64,000 nt of DNA, taken from the NCBI RefSeq assembly GCF_023028225.1, contig NZ_CP095482.1, forward strand, positions 620,001-684,000. Direction: 5' to 3'. The stretch's first letter is position 1, and the number at the start of each line of letters is the position of its first letter. The position numbers and the translations under genes are program-made. Origin of the DNA: Halorientalis litorea (GTDB lineage Archaea; Halobacteriota; Halobacteria; Halobacteriales; Haloarculaceae). Shown here one piece after another: positions 25,387 to 55,320 of the stretch. The notes beneath the pieces were generated by a model. It was not told where the DNA came from. It did not search any database and was given only the letters and a program-made list of their open reading frames with translations.

Positions 25387-26056
25387 GTGTTCAGATAAGC
25401 TTGAGAAGTGAGGCGGGAACGGTTTTTAGTGCTCTATGCCAAAAAACGAGCACCTCAACGGCTGTTTAGACCAGGAGCGAGAAGCGGCACCGCGACTGCT
25501 GATGAAACTCAGTATTCAGCTACATTTGGCTGGACGTTCGCTTGCGAATACTGTTTCGTTTCTTGAGGTATTTGGTGTCCAACGCGCTCGCTCTACCGTA
25601 CACAACTGGGTCCACAAGGCCGATCTACAGCCCCAAGACGGACGCGATCCGGATCACGTCGCGGTCGACGAGGCCGTGATCCAACTTGACGACGAACGCT
25701 ACTGGCTGTACGCCGCCGTCGATCCTGACACGAACGAATTACTCCACACAAAGCTTGAACCGACCAGAACGAACGCTCTCGCTCATGCGTTTTTCGCCGA
25801 ACTCCGCGAGAAACACGCCGTTGATGACGCCGTGGTTCTCGTTGACGGCACCGCCTCACTGAAAGACGCTTGCCAGCGACACGGCCTCGATTTCAGATAC
25901 GAACGCCACGGAATCGGAACAGCGTCAAACGTGTCTTTCGTGAAGTAAAACGGCGCACGTCTTCGTTCTCAAACTGTTTCAGCAACGCCGAGCGAGAAAC
26001 TGCCGACGACTGGATCGAAGCATTCGCCTTCGCATGGAATCAGCTAATCTGAACAC
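25387..26056 (+). mobile_element. IS6-family insertion sequence, 670 bp
   Basis: Bounded by 14-base terminal repeats matching at 13 positions: GTGTTCAGATAAGC at 25387-25400 and the complement of GTGTTCAGATTAGC at 26043-26056. It holds one transposase gene. The flanking 8 bases do not match each other (CGGCG-side versus TACCAAAG), so no target duplication remains, which points to deletion or recombination after insertion. Confidence 0.85.
25436..26052 (+). pseudogene. IS6 transposase with a single-base deletion
   Basis: The first frame (25436-25948) encodes the helix-turn-helix region, the first catalytic Asp (VAVDEAVIQ) and the second (VVLVDGTAS). At 25911-25914 one base is missing from an A-run (GGAATCGG where GGAAATCGG would keep the frame HGNRNSV). 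The remaining third catalytic residue (RVFREVKRR) and C-terminus are in the +1-shifted frame ending at 26052. The copy is probably inactive unless ribosomes shift frame. Confidence 0.85.
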
Positions 26057-46857: not shown

Positions 46858-46936
46858 CGGTGTCTAAGGTCCACAAGACGCAGAGTCTGGGTTATTAAAG
46901 AACCAGAGTGTTCTATTTTATCACTATAAGCCACTA

Positions 46937-47158
46937 TCAGTCGTAAGGAGACAGGTATAATTCGGTATGGTGAATAATCGTCCATTCATCAGGATCTGAG
47001 GCACTATCCTGAAAGGTACCCCACATCATAAGCCTGTTTTCATGATATTTTGTAGTCTTCACTGACATACAATACGGAAGACCATCAAAACAGATAGCTC
47101 CGAATTTGCCCCCGCTATAGTGCATCCTATTAACTTTATCGAACCTTTGTTCAAGCAA
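46937..47158 (-). CDS. Possible small hypothetical protein
   Basis: A frame of 73 residues from a TTG start at 47158 (or from an ATG at 47125). It reads as plausible protein in low-GC DNA (KFGAICFDGLPYCMSVKTTK, WTIIHHTELYLSP) with TATATATT about 20 bases upstream of the TTG. There is no family match that I know and no partner gene. The rest of the 417-base gap 46858-47274 holds only the promoter of the next operon. Confidence 0.35.
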   Translation of the reverse strand: MLEQRFDKVNRMHYSGGKFGAICFDGLPYCMSVKTTKYHENRLMMWGTFQDSASDPDEWTIIHHTELYLSPYD

Positions 47159-47246
47159 GTAGCTATATCTTCAATATATAGTTTCTATTTCTATCTAATT
47201 CTGAACTCAAGTATACAGAACACAAATTGTTTAACACCCCAATTGG

Positions 47247-47254
47247 AATATTTT
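47247..47254 (+). promoter_or_regulatory. TATA-like element of the transfer-type operon
   Basis: AATATTTT about 25 bases before ATG 47275, following a long AT-rich stretch. Confidence 0.55.
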
Positions 47255-47274
47255 GGTAACTAGTGTGGGTCGTT

Positions 47275-48930
47275 ATGTCACACCAGACCACTCTCTCCCA
47301 AGCAGGTTACGAGGAAAACGGGAGCGGTAATCTCGGATTGAGTGCCGTATCTGCAATCAGTGGACAGGCCTATATCCCGCGGTGTTACCCTTCACGGTCT
47401 GACGAGCCCCTTCCATGGGAATATGACGCAGAGGTGGTTATGATTTCAGTCAGGGAGGTGCTCCATTGGCAACGTAATGAGCAACAGAGCATTGACTCAC
47501 TCATTCGCGAGGACCAAGTTCCAATAATCACTGAGATCTCACTAGATGAATCACTCGATGCCAGAACGGAAGAGGAACTAATCACAGCAATCGCGCCGCT
47601 ACAGGAGGGATATCTCGTACTCGATGGACCTGGTCTCCGCCTCGACGATCCACTCCAGAAAAAGGTCGATTACTTCGTACAGTATATAAAGCACGTAGGA
47701 CGCGTTCGAGACCTTCTATCAGACCGAGGGATTCAGCTTAATATGGTGCCGCTAGTGAAGACCGTCGAGTTCCACCTTTTAATGTCAACCGTGGCCGGCG
47801 TATCTCTCTCTGATTTTCAGCTCTTAGGGTTCTACGCGCGTTCCTACAATGACAGGCAAAGTCTTGTCTCACATCTAACACTAGTTGACAAGGTGCTTGA
47901 CCCAGAGCAGATTTTGCTCATCGGTCGTGTTGCTCCGTCCGAAATCAAGTACTACCCCAACTCAGTGCAGACGGTGGCTGGGATCAGCAAGCTGAAGAGG
48001 TCCTACCCTGCTGTCATTGAGGATAATGTAGTAGATACAGCTCCGCTTGAGGATGATCTTCAGCAGGGTCTCGCTGCGCGGGCAGAACAGCAATTAACGC
48101 AGCTTTCACAGTTTGGTGGAATACCGCTGGAAAGACTAGCACCAAAGGGTGGCAAAACATCCCATCGCGACTACGGGACAAGCAATGAAACTGATACGAG
48201 CCAGCAATCAGTTACTGCACAGTTCGAGACGCCCTCCGGAAAGAAGGTCCAGATTGATATCTACGGTCACCCCGCTGACCCCGTCCTATGGGACATACAC
48301 TCCCCTATCGAAGGCACCCTCCGTGATGCTGGAGGTGCAATTGAGTCGGTTTCTTATCACCTCGTCAGTGCGGCTGATTACGAAACAATCGGTCTGGCAC
48401 TCGATCAGTGGGATCATCGTTCTGAGTTTGCGGGTCGAGACTTGGAGCCCCCGGAATCGCTAAGGACTGAAGAGGGTCTACCCGATGCGCGACAGTTGCT
48501 GTCTGTTGTTCAGAGCTCTCGACCCGCTGCCGGCTTAGAAGCACTCTACCGTACACAGTATGAACTGTTTGTAAAAGAGACAGTTCCTGAGCGAGTGCTT
48601 ACATCTCAGCATTCGTCGAATAACCAAGATCGCGCCGAGCAGTCACAGTACACTCCAGTTGATGCCTCATCTCTGGACGTGCCAGATACGAAGAGCCTTC
48701 GCCTACCGCTGGTGGTTATCTCTACTGACACGGAGCGAGTTCGAGTAAGTGGTCCTGTCAGCAAGGAGGAGCTGGTTTCGCAAATAGAATCATTGGGGGT
48801 CAGTCTGAGGGGTGACGAGGGCGTGCCTGAGAAGTGTTACAGTTCCGATATTGTCTCGTACATTCGGGGTGACCGGGTGGGTCTTGACCACGAACTATCG
48901 ACGGAGAGTGCCCATGACACCCGAGACTGA
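47275..48930 (+). CDS. Unknown soluble protein, first gene of transfer-type operon
   Basis: A 551-residue acidic protein. Residues about 50-230 alternate strands and helices in the manner of a TIM-type barrel (DAEVVMISVREVLHW, GYLVLDGPGLRL, IQLNMVPLVKTVE, LLGFYARSYND, EQILLIGRVAPSEIKYY). The middle is low-complexity and polar, and the C-terminus has a second beta-rich segment (LPLVVISTDTERVRVSGPVS). No Walker, zinc or membrane motif. Its last 17 bases overlap the next gene, so it is translated with the membrane protein and ATPase. I recognise no family. Confidence 0.8.
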   Translation: MSHQTTLSQAGYEENGSGNLGLSAVSAISGQAYIPRCYPSRSDEPLPWEYDAEVVMISVREVLHWQRNEQQSIDSLIREDQVPIITEISLDESLDARTEEELITAIAPLQEGYLVLDGPGLRLDDPLQKKVDYFVQYIKHVGRVRDLLSDRGIQLNMVPLVKTVEFHLLMSTVAGVSLSDFQLLGFYARSYNDRQSLVSHLTLVDKVLDPEQILLIGRVAPSEIKYYPNSVQTVAGISKLKRSYPAVIEDNVVDTAPLEDDLQQGLAARAEQQLTQLSQFGGIPLERLAPKGGKTSHRDYGTSNETDTSQQSVTAQFETPSGKKVQIDIYGHPADPVLWDIHSPIEGTLRDAGGAIESVSYHLVSAADYETIGLALDQWDHRSEFAGRDLEPPESLRTEEGLPDARQLLSVVQSSRPAAGLEALYRTQYELFVKETVPERVLTSQHSSNNQDRAEQSQYTPVDASSLDVPDTKSLRLPLVVISTDTERVRVSGPVSKEELVSQIESLGVSLRGDEGVPEKCYSSDIVSYIRGDRVGLDHELSTESAHDTRD

Positions 48931-50509
48931 CGGTGATGACTCTACCACCGAAGGGTCGTGGCTATATCGTCCTCGAGAGATGTTATTGTATCAGCCCGAA
49001 CAACACCCAACAGATCCGGACCAATTGAGTAGGGCAGGGTCTGTCCTGCATGGTGATGTTACTGATCCTAAGAAGTCAGTGGAATACGTCAAGCGTCATT
49101 GGCTGGAACGCAACCCGCCTCGGTATTTCATCTTGATCGTCACGGTACTCATCGGGTTACCACTCGTGTATTTTTCTGATCTCGCTTACCGTATCGGGTG
49201 GCAGGTAGGTATCGCGTCAATCGTACCTGACATGGTGCAAGTAGTTGAGAACACCACCTCGGGTTCCGGACTGTTCGTTTTTATCATCGATATAATAATA
49301 GCAGGGCTAGTATCGATGGTCTGTGGCTTCATAGTTTATACCGGCATCTACGCGTACCGGTACAGTCCAGATCACGAGCGTTCGACGGGTGTCGTTCTGT
49401 CGACAACCGGTGATGGAGCCCTGCAGGCAGCGTATTTTTCCGGCGACGCCACTGCTGATGAGGCCTCCTCAAGCCACGAGACCACCACTGACGGCGATGA
49501 TGACAGTGGTACTGATGCTGTCGGCATCTCGGTGGTGAAATCCACCCACAGAGAGGCACTCGATAGCGGGCAGTTCAGCGAGCAAACTGCGTCCTATGCG
49601 TCGATGCTCGGTTGCGACACACAGACAGATTCCAGCTGCGAACCAGTTGTTATCGAGTTCACGATGCGTGAAGATCGTCCACTGGACGGGCTACTGAAGG
49701 GGCCGACCGTAGAGGATGTGGCTCGTACCGACACGGACGTCGGCTTATTGCTGGACGAACTCGGTGCGGAGTTGATTCAAGCCGAGATTCCGGCACTCGT
49801 GCAAGTCACCGTAAGTGGTCGTCGAAAGATGCAGTCACGGCTCGACCAGCGTGTTCGGGCGATCAGAAAGCGACTGGATTGCGGGCTCTTGACACAGTTC
49901 GTTCGTTTCTGGATCGCCAAGACGCCGCCCGAGCGGCGACCCGACAAGGAGCTCACTGAACCGGAACGCCAGCGCGTTCAGCAGTTACGTGCCACGAAGG
50001 GCGATGAATTGTTCGACGTTAACGTTCATTTAGTCGCGATTCCAGACACTGCTGAGTACAGAGACGTTCAGTCGCTCGCTAACTCGGTCGAGTCGCATCT
50101 TGAAACGGTCACGAACAACCGATGTGACATTGACCATCGACAGTTCGAGCCACGAACAGGGTCGTTGCTGCCCGGCATGCAGACGGAGTACGAGCGCGTC
50201 ACCCGACGCTTGGATCGGGGCGCAGTTACGTACACGTCCCCGTCAAGATTCCTCGGACACGGGCGCAGTCGGCGAGTGAACTGTGTCGCCGATAGCGAGC
50301 AAATCTATGCGTACTTGGCTGTCACGGGGAGTGGCCATCACACCACTAGCCGCGCTCACGGGTCGTTTCCGCGTGACCAAGCACCGACTGGACGCCCACC
50401 ACGAGAGCAGTCCGAGCGGTTGCGCGCAGATTCATCATTCGACGACAATGCTAGGCAGGCAACCGACCAGTCCGGCACCCCGAATTCGGACGCGGAGGAG
50501 ACCAGATGA
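48914..50509 (+). CDS. Two-helix membrane protein, possible channel or N-terminal partner of ATPase
   Basis: A 531-residue protein with an acidic N-terminus, two membrane helices (YFILIVTVLIGLPLVYFSDL, and LFVFIIDIIIAGLVSMVCGF plus extension) and a large cytoplasmic region of about 370 residues. That region has strands VVIEFTMREDR, IPALVQVTVSGRR and LFDVNVHLVAIPD and ends in an Arg- and Ser-rich disordered tail. The alternating beta/helix portion ahead of a separately encoded ATPase recalls the N-terminal domains of VirB4/HerA-type proteins, here split into another gene and membrane-anchored (inference). It overlaps the ATPase gene by 4 bases (ATGA). Confidence 0.75.
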   Translation: MTPETDGDDSTTEGSWLYRPREMLLYQPEQHPTDPDQLSRAGSVLHGDVTDPKKSVEYVKRHWLERNPPRYFILIVTVLIGLPLVYFSDLAYRIGWQVGIASIVPDMVQVVENTTSGSGLFVFIIDIIIAGLVSMVCGFIVYTGIYAYRYSPDHERSTGVVLSTTGDGALQAAYFSGDATADEASSSHETTTDGDDDSGTDAVGISVVKSTHREALDSGQFSEQTASYASMLGCDTQTDSSCEPVVIEFTMREDRPLDGLLKGPTVEDVARTDTDVGLLLDELGAELIQAEIPALVQVTVSGRRKMQSRLDQRVRAIRKRLDCGLLTQFVRFWIAKTPPERRPDKELTEPERQRVQQLRATKGDELFDVNVHLVAIPDTAEYRDVQSLANSVESHLETVTNNRCDIDHRQFEPRTGSLLPGMQTEYERVTRRLDRGAVTYTSPSRFLGHGRSRRVNCVADSEQIYAYLAVTGSGHHTTSRAHGSFPRDQAPTGRPPREQSERLRADSSFDDNARQATDQSGTPNSDAEETR

Positions 50510-52998
50510 GCGACCAGCACCGAATGATTCTGGGGCGAGAGGTCACCCGTGACGGCGATGTCGGTGACCCAATCGGGCTACAGAAAGACGTTTGGAACCG
50601 GCATCTCCTGATTAGTGGCCGGACCGGATCCGGGAAGTCCACCATGGCAACAACCGCCATCGCATCGGCACATCCCGCGACGTCCGGTCCGACGGTCGTA
50701 CTCGATCCGAAAGGGGATGGCTGGCTACGCGAGGTTGCCCGTGCCCACTACGCTCGGACTGGCTCGCTCGATGACGTCCTGTATTTCGACGTGTCCAAGT
50801 TCCTGCCCGCCATCTCCTATTTTGATATCAGGCGTGACGTAGCTGCTGGGGTGGACAGACTGCGCGCAGTGCAGGATGTCGCAGACCATTTCATCAGACT
50901 GCTGGACCATACAAAACCGGCTGACTTCGACGCAATTCGGTCGCCAGACGTAATTCGGTATCTCATCATGGCATTATTCGATCCCGTCCACGGTGCAGAC
51001 TCGTACGAGCTGTCAACGTTGGCCGCCGCCGTCTACGCGTACCGGCAGACCCAGACGACGCCAGATGTCCATCCGGAGTGGAGCGACCGCCTCCTCGACA
51101 GCATTACCCACGGGAATGCCCGAGATATCGATACCATCGCACAGGGGGCGGTCACCCGTATCGAGAAATTCTATGGCGACGGGTATCTGCGTCCGCTGTT
51201 CGACCATTCACCGTCCGCGCCTTCAGAGGCGTTCAGTTTCCACGACTGGCTCACTGAGGATGTACTCATCCTGCTTGACCTGAGCGGGCCGTCGACGCGA
51301 GCACGGCGGGTGCTCGCCAATCTCATCCTGTCACTGTTTTGGCGCGCAGTGCGGACCCGTGAGTCAGCCACAAACCCCCCGCAGTCACTTTTATTCATCG
51401 ACGAGGCACCACAGTTACGAATCGATTCACATCTCGAGTCACTTCTCGCACTCGGCCGCAGTCAGAATCTCGGTGTCATCCCGATGGTCCAGTACCCCGC
51501 ACAGTTCGACCGCTCAGGCGACACCGCCGCCACCGAGGATACCATCGCGTATGACGAACTCCTGAACAACATTCACAGCGTTGTCACCGGGGCGGTCCCC
51601 AGCGACGACCAGTTCACGGCGCGACTCTCCGGCAGTCACATGAGCCAAGCCGAAGTCGAAAACCGACTGCGTAACCTGCCCAGCGGGCACTGGCTGTTCG
51701 ACCCGGCCGTCCCCAGAAATGAGACACCCATCCGTTCCCATACCATCGCAGACCCCCCACTCCCACCCGGCCATCCCGACGGCTCGACACCACTTGCCGA
51801 AAGCGAGCAAACCGAGTTCGATACTGCGTTCAGCAACTGCCGCGAGCACACAAGCACCCAACACGGGATTCCGTACGACGACTATACCGCACCGGACGGC
51901 GTCGCCTCCGAGGCCAACCCGGCACCCAATCTCGCAGCTGAGACGTGGACGCAGCTTCGGGACACGAATTTCAACACGTTGCTTCCGCTTGTCGACCTGC
52001 CAGAAGCAGTCGAATACGACCACGACCGAACAGCACTCCGCTGTCGCTCCTGCGGGAGTACCCACGACTGTTCGGATACCGGCCTGCGTGACGCGATCCG
52101 TTGCCATAGTGACCTTGACGCGCTCGACCGCAGTTCAGTAGTACCGGTCGAGCTCGGGTTGTCTATGACCCCCGACGAACTCACAGCCGCGCCAGTCCCG
52201 CCGGTACAGATACTTGCACTCCAACTCCTGTACAATGTCAAGGCCGGCCGGTACGACCCACGAGTACTCGATCCGGTGTTCGACCCGCTACCACGGGTGT
52301 TCGACACACTAAGCATCGACCGGGCACACCTGTCGGAATTGGCCGAAGCCGGCTACCTCAACAATGACGACCAGTTTCGCGAATTCGTCTACTACGACGT
52401 CACCAAAGACGGCCGCGACCTGCTGAACGAGCCGCATCGTCGCGGCATCGATTGGGGACACAAAAAACGCGACCAGACTGAATCACTCCTGCATATCGTG
52501 ATGGTTGACGCACTTGCCCGCTATCTGGAACAGACTGCCATCCCAGACCCAGACTCACCCGTCGAAGACGTCAACAAATACTTCGAACTCAATACGGAGC
52601 AACTGGCGGAATACGGTCTCGAAAGCCAAGCACGGCTCGACGTCGTCGGCCTAGATACCACAGGCCAGATCCATGTCGTGGGTGAAGCGGAACGACTGAA
52701 CAACGACCGAGCGGTCGCACCGATCCATGACTTCGACCAACTCGCGGCAATCGACCCCGAAGAAGCAATCTGGGCTGTCTCAAGCAGCGGGAATGGCCAC
52801 GAAGCAGTTCTCCAACCACTCCAAGACCCGGCAGCTGATATCGCAGGCATCGAGGATGACACGCCGCGCCTCCCCACTTCGTTCACGTCCAGAACCCGAA
52901 TCAGTGACATCAGTGAAATCGATTCTGCCGGACTGACTGCAATCAAGACGCTGAATAGCCTTCGGAAGGAACTATCTAAGCCATCACTCAGTGACTAA
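50506..52998 (+). CDS. VirD4/HerA-type DNA-pumping ATPase with C-terminal nuclease-like domain
   Basis: An 830-residue ATPase. Walker A GRTGSGKST at 38-46; VVLDPKGDG at 64-72, typical of coupling proteins; Walker B LLFIDEAPQ at 295-303; arginine-finger-like AVPSDDQFTARLSG region at about 363-376. A possible zinc ribbon has C513, C516, C522 and C533. After a winged-helix-like stretch (about 565-640) comes a domain with RLDVVGLD at 710-717 and VVGEAE at 724-729, the D...E-x-E/K spacing of PD-(D/E)xK nuclease folds, though the usual Lys is Glu. It would bind and move DNA at the membrane with the two upstream products. Confidence 0.85.
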   Translation: MSDQHRMILGREVTRDGDVGDPIGLQKDVWNRHLLISGRTGSGKSTMATTAIASAHPATSGPTVVLDPKGDGWLREVARAHYARTGSLDDVLYFDVSKFLPAISYFDIRRDVAAGVDRLRAVQDVADHFIRLLDHTKPADFDAIRSPDVIRYLIMALFDPVHGADSYELSTLAAAVYAYRQTQTTPDVHPEWSDRLLDSITHGNARDIDTIAQGAVTRIEKFYGDGYLRPLFDHSPSAPSEAFSFHDWLTEDVLILLDLSGPSTRARRVLANLILSLFWRAVRTRESATNPPQSLLFIDEAPQLRIDSHLESLLALGRSQNLGVIPMVQYPAQFDRSGDTAATEDTIAYDELLNNIHSVVTGAVPSDDQFTARLSGSHMSQAEVENRLRNLPSGHWLFDPAVPRNETPIRSHTIADPPLPPGHPDGSTPLAESEQTEFDTAFSNCREHTSTQHGIPYDDYTAPDGVASEANPAPNLAAETWTQLRDTNFNTLLPLVDLPEAVEYDHDRTALRCRSCGSTHDCSDTGLRDAIRCHSDLDALDRSSVVPVELGLSMTPDELTAAPVPPVQILALQLLYNVKAGRYDPRVLDPVFDPLPRVFDTLSIDRAHLSELAEAGYLNNDDQFREFVYYDVTKDGRDLLNEPHRRGIDWGHKKRDQTESLLHIVMVDALARYLEQTAIPDPDSPVEDVNKYFELNTEQLAEYGLESQARLDVVGLDTTGQIHVVGEAERLNNDRAVAPIHDFDQLAAIDPEEAIWAVSSSGNGHEAVLQPLQDPAADIAGIEDDTPRLPTSFTSRTRISDISEIDSAGLTAIKTLNSLRKELSKPSLSD

Positions 52999-53316
52999 GC
53001 ACCGGACGAGCCAGCAGTACCGCGCCTTTTCAAGCAGCCACAATCGACACGCCCTCGTTGTTGATGCAATACTGTCTGCTCCCAAAGCAAGGGCATCCTA
53101 TCAGCCGTAGCACTGCAATTTCCTCCTGAACCAGAGCGTAGCAACCGCAGCACTACCCGACCGATAAGGACAGCAAAATCGTCAGATTCAGCAGCACTGC
53201 CCCGACTATCCAGTAATGCACAACCAACCTACTGTCCGGACGTTACGTGTTGGTAACCACCCTAAATCGAAACGTGTCTGAGACTCACTCGCTAAGGATG
53301 TCCCGTTTTAGAAGAT

Positions 53317-53403
53317 ATGATTGATCTACCCTCGGCAGGCTTTGTAGTTGTTCTGACTTTGTCAGTGTTCTCTCCCGTGATAGTTGTCACGTTCAGGTAT
53401 TAA
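53317..53403 (+). CDS. Possible 28-residue hydrophobic peptide
   Basis: ATG frame reading M-I-D-L-P-S-A-G followed by FVVVLTLSVFSPVIVVTF and R-Y: a single membrane helix. No convincing promoter spacing. Reported only as a candidate. Confidence 0.25.
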   Translation: MIDLPSAGFVVVLTLSVFSPVIVVTFRY

Positions 53404-53775
53404 ACACGCACCCCGATACAGATCGTGTCTATCTATAATTTCAAGTTGGAGTAAACACGACACAGCAGAGCGGAGTGACGACCTCTCCACCTTATAAACG
53501 CTTGTACGTAGATGCGGCCGCGTGAGTGACGCTGTCAGTCAGTTAACTTTCTCAGCAGACCTTTTCCGAACACAAATATCGGAATCGCCCTTCGTATGCA
53601 GTTGTGATGATAACACGAGTTCTCTGCTAAACTATCGGACGTGAGCCTACCCAGTGATACAACGATTCCGCATCGCTCAGTATATTTCGATGCTCGCTCA
53701 ACCGGTTCGAGTATGTCTGGACACTAGTTTCGGAGAGTAACTCGATCGTGTTATTGTCAATATGGAGTCTGAGCG

Positions 53776-54015
53776 GTGTCTATATTAGAAATGCTGTTAG
53801 AGTCACCAAGGAGTATCAAGGTGAGTCAGACTAGTGGTACAGTCGATGTGTTCCTGTGGTCCACGGATGGAGTCGTAGGTGGTGACAGGGATTCATCGGG
53901 CGTATTGATAAGAGGAGATGAAATAGAAGAGTATGTCTTCTCAGGTACATTCATGATATCCGTAGCTCTACTCAACCATTCCCCTCTATCGGTTATCGGT
54001 TGTGTATACAATTAA
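53776..54015 (+). CDS. Possible small hypothetical protein
   Basis: A 79-residue frame from GTG 53776 (or 74 from ATG 53791). It has strand-like segments TSGTVDVFLWSTDG and EEYVFSGTFMISVALLNHS. No family or promoter. It lies at the GC boundary just before the glycosyltransferase gene on the other strand. Confidence 0.3.
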   Translation: MSILEMLLESPRSIKVSQTSGTVDVFLWSTDGVVGGDRDSSGVLIRGDEIEEYVFSGTFMISVALLNHSPLSVIGCVYN

Positions 54016-54084
54016 AAGAAATAATATAATTACAACAACTCACGATATCGAGGGTCTCAGTCTCACCGAAGAACCAGTCGATAC

Positions 54085-55320
54085 TTAACGACTCTGCCCA
54101 GCGATAGCACTCATGAAGAACGCAGAAAACACGATCTGAATGCCGAGGACGATAACGGTGGCACCGAAGATATCAGGGAGCACAGACGACAGCGCGCCGT
54201 ACCCTTCGGTGCTCCACTGTAGGACCCTCAGGGCGACGTACCCGAGGCCGCTGACCAGCATGACACCGCCCAACATCGCGCCCCGTTCGAGCGTCAGTCT
54301 GTCGGTTATCCACTCGGTTACCGCGTCTTCCTGTCGGCGGATGGGGTCACTCGCGAGCGTCGAGAAAACGCCGAAGCTACCGACTTGGAAGGCTACGAGC
54401 AGCGAAAGGTTCCCCGCGATCATCGTTCGGATGCCGAACGACGCTTGGCCGATGGAGATGTCGAACAGCGCGAGTAGACACAGGGTGGTTCCGACGACGC
54501 CTAGCCCCAGTGCCGGAACGCTGAACAGGTAGCCCGGCGCGTTCAGCAGCATGAACCGAACGTGGCGCCACCCGTCGCGGAAACTGTCCAGCGTCTCCTC
54601 ACCCTCGCGCTCGTGGTAGACGATGGGCACCTCCTCGATGGTCAGGTCGCGCGAGCCCGCTTCCATGATCATCTCGCTGGCGAACTCCATCCCGTCCGTC
54701 GAGAGGTCCATCTCCGCGAGGGCGTCCCGGTGGAACACCCGGAACCCGCTGTGGGCGTCGCTGACGCCGGCGTCGTAGAACGCGTTGAGGAACTTCGTCA
54801 ACAGCGGATTGCCGACGTACTGGTGGAGCGTGGGCATCGCACCGGCCCGTATCTCGCCGTCGAGACGGCTCCCCATGACCATGTCGGCGTCGCCCTCGCG
54901 AACCGGTTCCAGCAGGCGCGGAATCTGCTCGAAGTCGTAGGTCGTGTCGGCGTCGCCCATCGCGATGTACTCGCCGCGGGCCCGCTCGAACGCGTAGCGG
55001 TAGGCGTAGCCGTACCCGGACCCGTCGGGTTCGACGACGACCGCACCCATCTCGCGCGCGATGTCGGGTGTCCGGTCGGTCGAACTGTCGCTGACGACGA
55101 TTTCGCTCGGGACGCCGAGTTCGACGACTGCGGATTTGATGCGGTCGATACACTCCGCGACCCCGTCTTCCTCGTTGAGCGTCGGCATGACGACGCTCAA
55201 CGTCGGTGTCTGCTCGCTGTCCGCGCCGAGCAACAAACCCTCCGTACCCGATTCGGTCGTCGAACCGGCCTGCTCGGATTCGGCCCCGGCGGCTTCGACA
55301 GACTCCTTGTCCGTCGACAT
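54085..55320 (-). CDS. GT2 glycosyltransferase, dolichyl-phosphate hexose synthase-like
   Basis: A 411-residue protein: a low-complexity acidic N-terminus of 38 residues, then a GT-A domain with LSVVMPTLNEEDGV, VVSDSSTDRTPDI, the metal-binding DADTTYDFEQIP (in place of DxD) and MGSRLDGEIRAG, followed by four C-terminal membrane helices from about residue 265. This architecture is that of polyprenyl-phosphate sugar synthases, which load glucose or mannose on dolichyl phosphate. It is GC-rich core DNA bordering the glycan island and may supply lipid-linked sugar to it. Confidence 0.87.
   Translation of the reverse strand: MSTDKESVEAAGAESEQAGSTTESGTEGLLLGADSEQTPTLSVVMPTLNEEDGVAECIDRIKSAVVELGVPSEIVVSDSSTDRTPDIAREMGAVVVEPDGSGYGYAYRYAFERARGEYIAMGDADTTYDFEQIPRLLEPVREGDADMVMGSRLDGEIRAGAMPTLHQYVGNPLLTKFLNAFYDAGVSDAHSGFRVFHRDALAEMDLSTDGMEFASEMIMEAGSRDLTIEEVPIVYHEREGEETLDSFRDGWRHVRFMLLNAPGYLFSVPALGLGVVGTTLCLLALFDISIGQASFGIRTMIAGNLSLLVAFQVGSFGVFSTLASDPIRRQEDAVTEWITDRLTLERGAMLGGVMLVSGLGYVALRVLQWSTEGYGALSSVLPDIFGATVIVLGIQIVFSAFFMSAIAGQSR

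What the first reader, a model, noticed from the sequence alone, without database searches (positions are those of the whole stretch)
47275..52998. Three-gene coupled operon: unknown protein, membrane protein, DNA-pumping ATPase
Three large genes with stop-start overlaps (17 and 4 bases) encode an unrecognised soluble protein, a two-helix membrane protein with a large cytoplasmic beta/helix region, and a VirD4/HerA-like ATPase. There is no relaxase, pilin or other secretion gene beside them, so this is not an ordinary conjugation locus. It could be a minimal DNA-export or import machine, or a defence system that pumps and cuts DNA. It is the strongest candidate in the window for an undescribed system.
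Basis: partly seen in the sequence, partly recalled or inferred. Interest (0 to 1): 0.78.

Follow-up and report, generated by a model that had tools for sequence, protein, structure and literature searches.

The report
Membrane-anchored DNA pump with TGT-like protein
In a salt-loving archaeon, three overlapping genes encode a conjugation-type DNA motor that has been split in two, tied to the membrane and cut loose from any conjugation machinery, together with a protein folded like a tRNA-base-swapping enzyme that antiviral systems also use; it is probably a small anti-invader module, but its function is untested.

Summary
In detail: three genes (551, 531 and 830 aa) with 17- and 4-base overlaps. 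The "unrecognised" first protein is not featureless. Its N-terminal half has the TIM-barrel fold of tRNA-guanine transglycosylase (TGT) and belongs to a haloarchaeal TGT-like family (58 of 391 genomes) that includes the TGT of type IV CBASS. Genes 2 and 3 are one VirD4/TrwB-type motor cut in two. Gene 2 carries the N-terminal domain of the usual one-gene protein plus two membrane helices; gene 3 carries the motor and a PD-(D/E)XK-like tail. Split motors form one clade. All seven sampled have a 2-3-helix membrane gene directly upstream, and none lies near a VirB4 gene, whereas 12 of 14 one-gene relatives lie within 70 kb of one. Three split-motor genomes have no detectable VirB4 or TrbL at all. 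So the motor pair recurs and is uncoupled from conjugation; the full trio was seen only here. A same-genus genome has the same flanking genes without the trio, so it is an insertion or replacement. Best explanation (about 45%): a membrane-tethered DNA-capture (anti-invader) module with the TGT-like protein as recognition subunit. Function is inferred, not shown.

The parts
46858..54084 (.). Segment between the sulfatase-like gene (ends 46857) and the glycosyltransferase gene (54085-55320, -) that holds the trio. In a same-genus genome (G412, locus L113) the same two flanking genes, 72-74% identical in DNA, enclose only a 284-aa gene without the trio.
47275..48930 (+). Gene 1 (P0001, 551 aa): TGT-fold N-terminal domain plus an unassigned C-terminal half
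47365..48018 (+). TGT-like (beta/alpha) barrel domain of gene 1 (residues 31-248); D91, R97, D117 and K162, invariant among its closest relatives, are kept, while the nearly invariant Q190 is not
48914..50509 (+). Gene 2 (P0002, 531 aa): membrane subunit carrying the N-terminal domain of the usual one-gene motor
49127..49183 (+). Predicted membrane helix 1 of gene 2 (residues 72-90)
   Evidence: hydropathy
49277..49333 (+). Predicted membrane helix 2 of gene 2 (residues 122-140)
   Evidence: hydropathy
49562..50425 (+). Region of gene 2 (residues 217-504) homologous to the N-terminal domain of the one-gene motors
   Evidence: HMM E 7e-16; hhalign 95.8% probability
50506..52998 (+). Gene 3 (P0003, 830 aa): VirD4/TrwB-type DNA-pumping ATPase
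50617..50640 (+). Walker A of gene 3 (GRTGSGKS, residues 38-45)
52042..52053 (+). CxxC (residues 513-516), invariant in the alignment; possible zinc ribbon
52633..52707 (+). PD-(D/E)XK-like module of gene 3 (RLDVVGLD...GEAERLNND, residues 710-734). The last motif position, Lys in four of the seven split members, is Leu here, so it may be inactive.

Best explanation
The trio is a compact, horizontally inserted module built around a VirD4/TrwB-type DNA motor that evolution has separated from type IV secretion. Shown: the motor is split into a membrane subunit (gene 2: two helices plus the domain that is the N-terminus of the one-gene relatives) and a soluble motor (gene 3); split motors form one clade, always sit next to such a membrane gene, and do not sit near T4SS genes. 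Shown: gene 1 carries a TGT-fold domain of the family whose members accompany CBASS cyclases and other defence genes. Inferred: gene 2 holds a gene 3 ring at the membrane; the TGT-like protein recognises a mark (a modified purine in DNA, or a nucleobase-tagged protein) and licenses the motor; the motor then pulls incoming or plasmid DNA through the ring, stripping it, or cutting it if the C-terminal nuclease-like module is active. The most likely role is defence against invading DNA at the membrane.
For: Motor identity: TrwB_AAD_bind 3e-8, DUF87 9e-7; the only PDB hits of the family profile are the coupling protein TrwB, 1e-8. Split of one gene. One clade, support 100/100. 7/7 split motors have a co-directional 422-531 aa protein with 2-3 membrane helices immediately upstream, against 0/14 one-gene motors. 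Uncoupled from conjugation: 12/14 one-gene motors lie within 70 kb of a VirB4 gene against 0/7 split ones (Fisher p 3e-4); G013, G145 and G063 have no VirB4 (E 1e-20) or TrbL_3 match in the whole genome. TGT fold: top 50 structural matches are all TGTs for two different models (Z 14 and 12-14). TGT-like relatives lie beside PbeA/PbeC, PglZ+BrxL, helicases of the DrmD/BrxH type, CBASS E1-E2/JAB and a CD-NTase plus 2TM effector. Downstream of the closest split pair (G219) lies a large protein with MkoA/DpdJ-like regions. HerA/FtsK and TGT co-occur in published BRC defence loci (PMC12839542). Trio absent from the same site in a same-genus genome.
Against: The full trio is known from one genome, so the link between gene 1 and the motor rests on gene overlap alone. 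No defence activity is tested. The 70-kb threshold was chosen after seeing the distances (at 30 kb p is 0.06), and G219 is a draft assembly in which the T4SS lies on another contig. The nuclease-like motif is degenerate in this copy. Gene 1 lacks the Met-Gly partner that accompanies most TGT-like relatives. Both structure models are of low to middling confidence (mean pLDDT 45 and 67).
Confidence: 0.45

Rival explanations
1. Orphan coupling protein: the trio's motor is a VirD4 that serves conjugation in trans, docking chromosomal or island DNA onto the T4SS encoded by the host's plasmids.
For: The closest solved relative is TrwB; the host carries two VirB4+TrbL operons, on contigs C3 and C4; one-gene relatives are T4SS- or ICE-linked.
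Against: Both plasmid T4SS operons have their own coupling protein, in a separate 100/100 clade. Three of seven split-motor genomes have no detectable VirB4 or TrbL. No relaxase-like gene was recognised among the proteins examined next to the trio, and a TGT domain has no known role in conjugation.
Confidence: 0.25
2. Stand-alone DNA transfer or import machine: the membrane subunit and motor form a minimal pore-motor that moves DNA across the membrane, comparable in logic to CedA/CedB.
For: Two-helix membrane subunit paired with a pumping ATPase in all seven split-motor loci; weak motor match to CedB and CedD models (about 5e-3).
Against: Two helices per subunit make a poor pore by themselves; no pilin or pore gene was recognised beside the seven; the CedB match is far below its cut-off (15.7 against 700 bits).
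Confidence: 0.15
3. Two unrelated things side by side: the split motor pair is a degenerating remnant of an integrated element, and gene 1 is a chance neighbour.
For: The trio was seen once; Lys is lost in the nuclease-like motif and Gln in the TGT domain; no P0001 homologue lies at the other six split-motor loci.
Against: All three frames are intact with 17- and 4-base overlaps, which suits co-translation; Walker motifs and the invariant motor residues are kept.
Confidence: 0.15

Closest known systems
VirD4/TrwB type IV coupling proteins, haloarchaeal T4SS and ICE branch (about 1,180-1,300 aa, one gene)
   Same: Motor, invariant motifs and C-terminal winged/PD-(D/E)XK-like tail; gene 2 holds the region that is their N-terminus
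   Different: Split into two genes, two membrane helices gained, own clade, no T4SS nearby
Cap10-type TGT of type IV CBASS and its haloarchaeal relatives
   Same: TGT barrel; HMM of the family hits gene 1 at 5e-29; top structural matches all TGT
   Different: No CD-NTase, no Met-Gly partner, fused to an extra C-terminal half (longest frame in the family), linked to a motor
BREX-related capture (BRC) systems, with HerA/FtsK and sometimes TGT (PMC12839542)
   Same: A HerA/FtsK-type translocase with a TGT-type protein in one locus
   Different: None of the other BRC parts (PglZ, DUF6079, DUF4007, STAND) is in the trio; the motor here is TrwB-like and membrane-linked
MADS component mad8
   Same: Best PADLOC match of gene 3, 2e-12
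   Different: The haloarchaeal T4SS VirB4 and coupling protein match mad8 as well, so the match reflects the ATPase superfamily

Membership tests
Type IV coupling protein (VirD4/TrwB) | RecA-like motor with coupling-protein DNA-binding region | tested here: met
   TrwB_AAD_bind 3e-8 above its cut-off; profile to TrwB structure 1e-8
Type IV coupling protein (VirD4/TrwB) | N-terminal membrane anchor in the same protein | tested here: not met
   Gene 3 has no membrane segment; the anchor is in gene 2
Type IV coupling protein (VirD4/TrwB) | Encoded with a mating-pair apparatus (VirB4, VirB6/TrbL) | tested here: not met
   None in the window, none on contig C1; absent near all seven split motors
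Type IV coupling protein (VirD4/TrwB) | Encoded with a relaxase | tested here: inconclusive
   None recognised among the proteins examined, but not every window protein was profile-scanned
HerA helicase | Partner NurA nuclease in the operon | tested here: inconclusive
   No NurA-type domain was reported in genes 1 or 2; the wider neighbourhood was not scanned for it
tRNA-guanine transglycosylase fold | TIM barrel with TGT topology | tested here: met
   Top 50 rows all TGT, Z about 14, 3.4-4.2 A over 206-223 residues; sister model Z 12-14; models of low to middling confidence
Catalytic tRNA-guanine transglycosylase | Zinc site (cluster of three Cys and one His) in the C-terminal subdomain | tested here: not met
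   Gene 1 has only two cysteines, far apart
Catalytic tRNA-guanine transglycosylase | Catalytic aspartate pair | tested here: inconclusive
   D91 and D117 are kept, but correspondence to the TGT catalytic residues could not be read from the tools' output; by eye no Asp at the last strand
Type IV CBASS | CD-NTase in the operon | tested here: not met
   Genes 2 and 3 gave no cyclase match
Type IV CBASS | Partner protein with N-terminal glycine | tested here: not met
   Genes 2 and 3 start MTPE and MSDQ
BRC system | PglZ, DUF6079, DUF4007 and STAND NTPase with HerA/FtsK | tested here: inconclusive
   Genes 1-3 gave no such PADLOC match and the neighbours are surface-glycan genes, but not every neighbour was scanned
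Ced DNA-import system | CedB-level match of the motor | tested here: not met
   15.7 bits against a cut-off of 700

The most novel reading that the evidence does not exclude
A previously undescribed class of membrane-anchored defence: a coupling-protein motor freed from conjugation and split into anchor and pump, seen in several haloarchaeal genera, which here recruits a Cap10-like TGT-fold sensor to mark which DNA is caught at the membrane.
Probability: 0.3. Interest if true: 0.8.

Novelty: new variant of a known kind. Interest (0 to 1): 0.52.

Why it matters
If confirmed, it would show a conjugation motor turned into a stand-alone membrane device, and would extend TGT-fold proteins beyond nucleic-acid modification and CBASS to a DNA-pumping system. 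It also gives a clear comparison, T4SS-linked one-gene motors against T4SS-free split motors, in which function can be tested in genetically tractable haloarchaea.

Tried and rejected
Pfam, NCBIfam and PHROGs gave nothing for genes 1 and 2. Gene 1's C-terminal half looked by eye like the DsbA/thioredoxin-like partner of its relatives, but a profile comparison was not clearly better than shuffled sequence (13 of 300 shuffles scored as high), so it is left unassigned. No viral contig and no plasmid for gene 1. Two alignment searches failed for lack of conserved stretches; the third gave five loci. The PDB sequence search with the TGT-like family found no TGT, so the fold rests on predicted structures. 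No flanking repeats that would define an element's ends were found (only short, chance-like repeats). I first read the one-gene motors as solitary; some searches showed that most lie within 70 kb of a T4SS operon.
Full report
Observation. They lie on the right side of a 30-kb low-GC island of surface-glycan genes: glycosyltransferases, an epimerase and sulfatase-like genes. The window is on the 2.8-Mb contig C1 of a haloarchaeal genome.

Insertion. A same-genus genome (G412, L113) has the glycosyltransferase, sulfatase-like, epimerase and second glycosyltransferase genes in the same order. DNA identity of the flanks is 72-74%. Between glycosyltransferase and sulfatase it has only a 284-aa gene, which the window lacks. 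The trio therefore sits in a variable slot, by insertion or replacement. No flanking repeats were found that would define an element.

Gene 3. It carries Walker A and B motifs and matches TrwB_AAD_bind, DUF87 and FtsK. A profile of eight family members hits TrwB, a conjugation coupling protein, and nothing else in the PDB at E 1e-3 or better. At E 1e-60, 142 of 391 sampled Halobacteria genomes have a relative. Most relatives are single genes of about 1,150-1,300 aa. The C-terminal part has an invariant CxxC, a winged-helix-like stretch (by eye) and a module RxDhxGhDxxG...ExER/K that resembles PD-(D/E)XK nucleases; this part is also present in a plasmid T4SS coupling protein (1e-27). Where four of the seven split members (three distinct types) have Lys in the last motif, this copy has Leu, so nuclease activity is doubtful.

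Gene 2. Residues 217-504 are homologous to the N-terminal domain of the one-gene motors (HMM 7e-16; hhalign 95.8% probability). The two hydrophobic helices at 72-90 and 122-140 have no counterpart in the first 450 residues of those motors. Genes 2 and 3 together are thus one motor cut in two, with a membrane anchor gained.

Recurrence of the pair. Seven split motors were examined: the window, G219 (49% identical), G013, G173, G296, G145 and G063 (G296 and G145 nearly identical). They form one clade with full support, separate from both the chromosomal one-gene motors and the plasmid T4SS coupling proteins. All seven have a co-directional protein of 422-531 aa with two or three membrane helices directly upstream; none of 14 one-gene motors has. 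The membrane proteins of the other split loci are too diverged to align with gene 2, except that of G219.

Uncoupling from conjugation. With the VirB4 of the host's own plasmid and the TrbL_3 model I searched all 21 genomes. Of 14 one-gene motors, 12 lie 15-68 kb from a VirB4 gene on the same contig; the two exceptions have it on another contig. None of the seven split motors does (nearest 1.6 Mb, or on another contig, or none in the genome); Fisher p 3e-4 at 70 kb, 0.06 at 30 kb. The 70-kb limit was set after seeing the data. G013, G145 and G063 have no VirB4 or TrbL_3 match in the whole genome. This is the strongest new evidence that the split motor is not a conjugation part.

Gene 1. Pfam and NCBIfam find nothing, but PADLOC's TGT model matches residues 52-238 (1.9e-5). 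A genome search found stand-alone relatives of about 280 aa; a profile of 14 of them hits gene 1 at 5e-29. An AlphaFold2 model of gene 1 has low confidence (mean pLDDT 45), yet all 50 best structural matches are tRNA-guanine transglycosylases (Z about 14 over 206-223 residues). A model of a stand-alone relative (pLDDT 67) gives the same answer, with archaeosine TGT on top (Z 13.8). The TGT-like family occurs in 58 of 391 genomes, and gene 1 has the longest open frame in it. The C-terminal half of gene 1 remains unassigned.

What the TGT-like relatives do. Their loci hold defence genes: PbeA and PbeC, PglZ with BrxL, a helicase of the DrmD/BrxH type, CBASS E1-E2/JAB, and in L045 a CD-NTase with a 2TM effector, which is the layout of type IV CBASS. 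In type IV CBASS the TGT-family protein Cap10 binds the deazaguanylated N-terminus of the CD-NTase (PMC11996544); QueC-family Cap9 modifies an N-terminal glycine (PMC13279940). Consistent with this, in 15 of 19 haloarchaeal TGT-like loci the next gene has a Met-Gly start near the TGT stop codon, against 8% of genes in general. Some of these 19 loci are close relatives of each other. The trio lacks such a partner: genes 2 and 3 start MTPE and MSDQ.

Is the trio a unit? Neither the trio nor a gene 1-gene 2 pair was seen in any other genome sampled. No TGT-like gene lies in the other six split-motor loci. In two other genomes (L158, L163) a TGT-like gene sits beside a VirB4-like and a VirD4-like gene, and published BRC loci combine HerA/FtsK with TGT (PMC12839542), so the pairing of TGT and DNA pump has precedents. 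Gene overlap in an intact three-gene block is the only direct evidence that gene 1 works with the motor.

Mechanism. I favour a membrane-tethered capture module: gene 2 anchors a ring of gene 3, gene 1 supplies recognition, and the motor strips or draws away invading DNA at the membrane, perhaps cutting it. Steps shown: anatomy, homology, split, recurrence of the pair and uncoupling from T4SS. Steps inferred: ring at the membrane, recognition by gene 1, target and outcome. Rivals are an orphan coupling protein acting in trans, a stand-alone transfer or import device, and an accidental neighbourhood.

Novelty. Each fold is known. The split, T4SS-free coupling-protein clade with its own membrane subunit, and its linkage here to a TGT-fold protein, were not described in the papers I could search; that search was limited to open-access text.

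Noticed in passing
L034-L047, L099, L117-L119, L154-L173: A haloarchaeal TGT-like gene is usually followed by a partner starting Met-Gly (15 of 19 in the counted set, background 8%), in many loci with a long acidic disordered linker and a DsbA-like, 'YGDIVHD' or CD-NTase domain. This looks like a broader family of Cap10-type TGT plus N-terminal-glycine partner, possibly deazaguanylated as in type IV CBASS.
   Followed up: partly
L045:4492-8060; L165:6256-8777; L167:6964-9537; L173:2026-4555: Haloarchaeal loci with TGT-like gene, Met-Gly partner and a small protein; in L045 the partner is a CD-NTase and the small protein a 2TM effector by PADLOC, i.e. type IV CBASS. The other three have the same layout but were not scanned.
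   Followed up: partly
L158:8147-17307; L163:972-9976: A TGT-like gene directly beside VirB4-like (1,036/1,082 aa) and VirD4-like (1,316/1,306 aa) genes, with a Met-Gly partner in L158.
   Followed up: no
G000 contigs C3 and C4 (L012, L013): Two plasmid-size contigs of the same genome carry similar T4SS operons (TrbL/VirB6, VirB4 89% identical, coupling protein), on C4 with a downstream gene resembling a primase.
   Followed up: partly
L120 (G000:C4:129828-130457): The only full-length QueC match of the genome is on contig C4, not on the main contig.
   Followed up: no
L077:6519-7901; L079:8139-9521; L080:8211-9593: An ATPase of the archaeal AAA type (460 aa, the L077 copy matches PADLOC PDC-S27, ECK nuclease-like tail) lies just downstream of the split motor in three genomes.
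   Followed up: no
window 25436-25948: Fragment matching an IS240-type DDE transposase in the low-GC island.
   Followed up: no
L010:14754-19998 continuing in L096:1-3040: Near the closest split motor pair (G219): a very large protein with RecB-like nuclease and helicase stretches by eye and MkoA/DpdJ matches, apparently interrupted near its end.
   Followed up: partly
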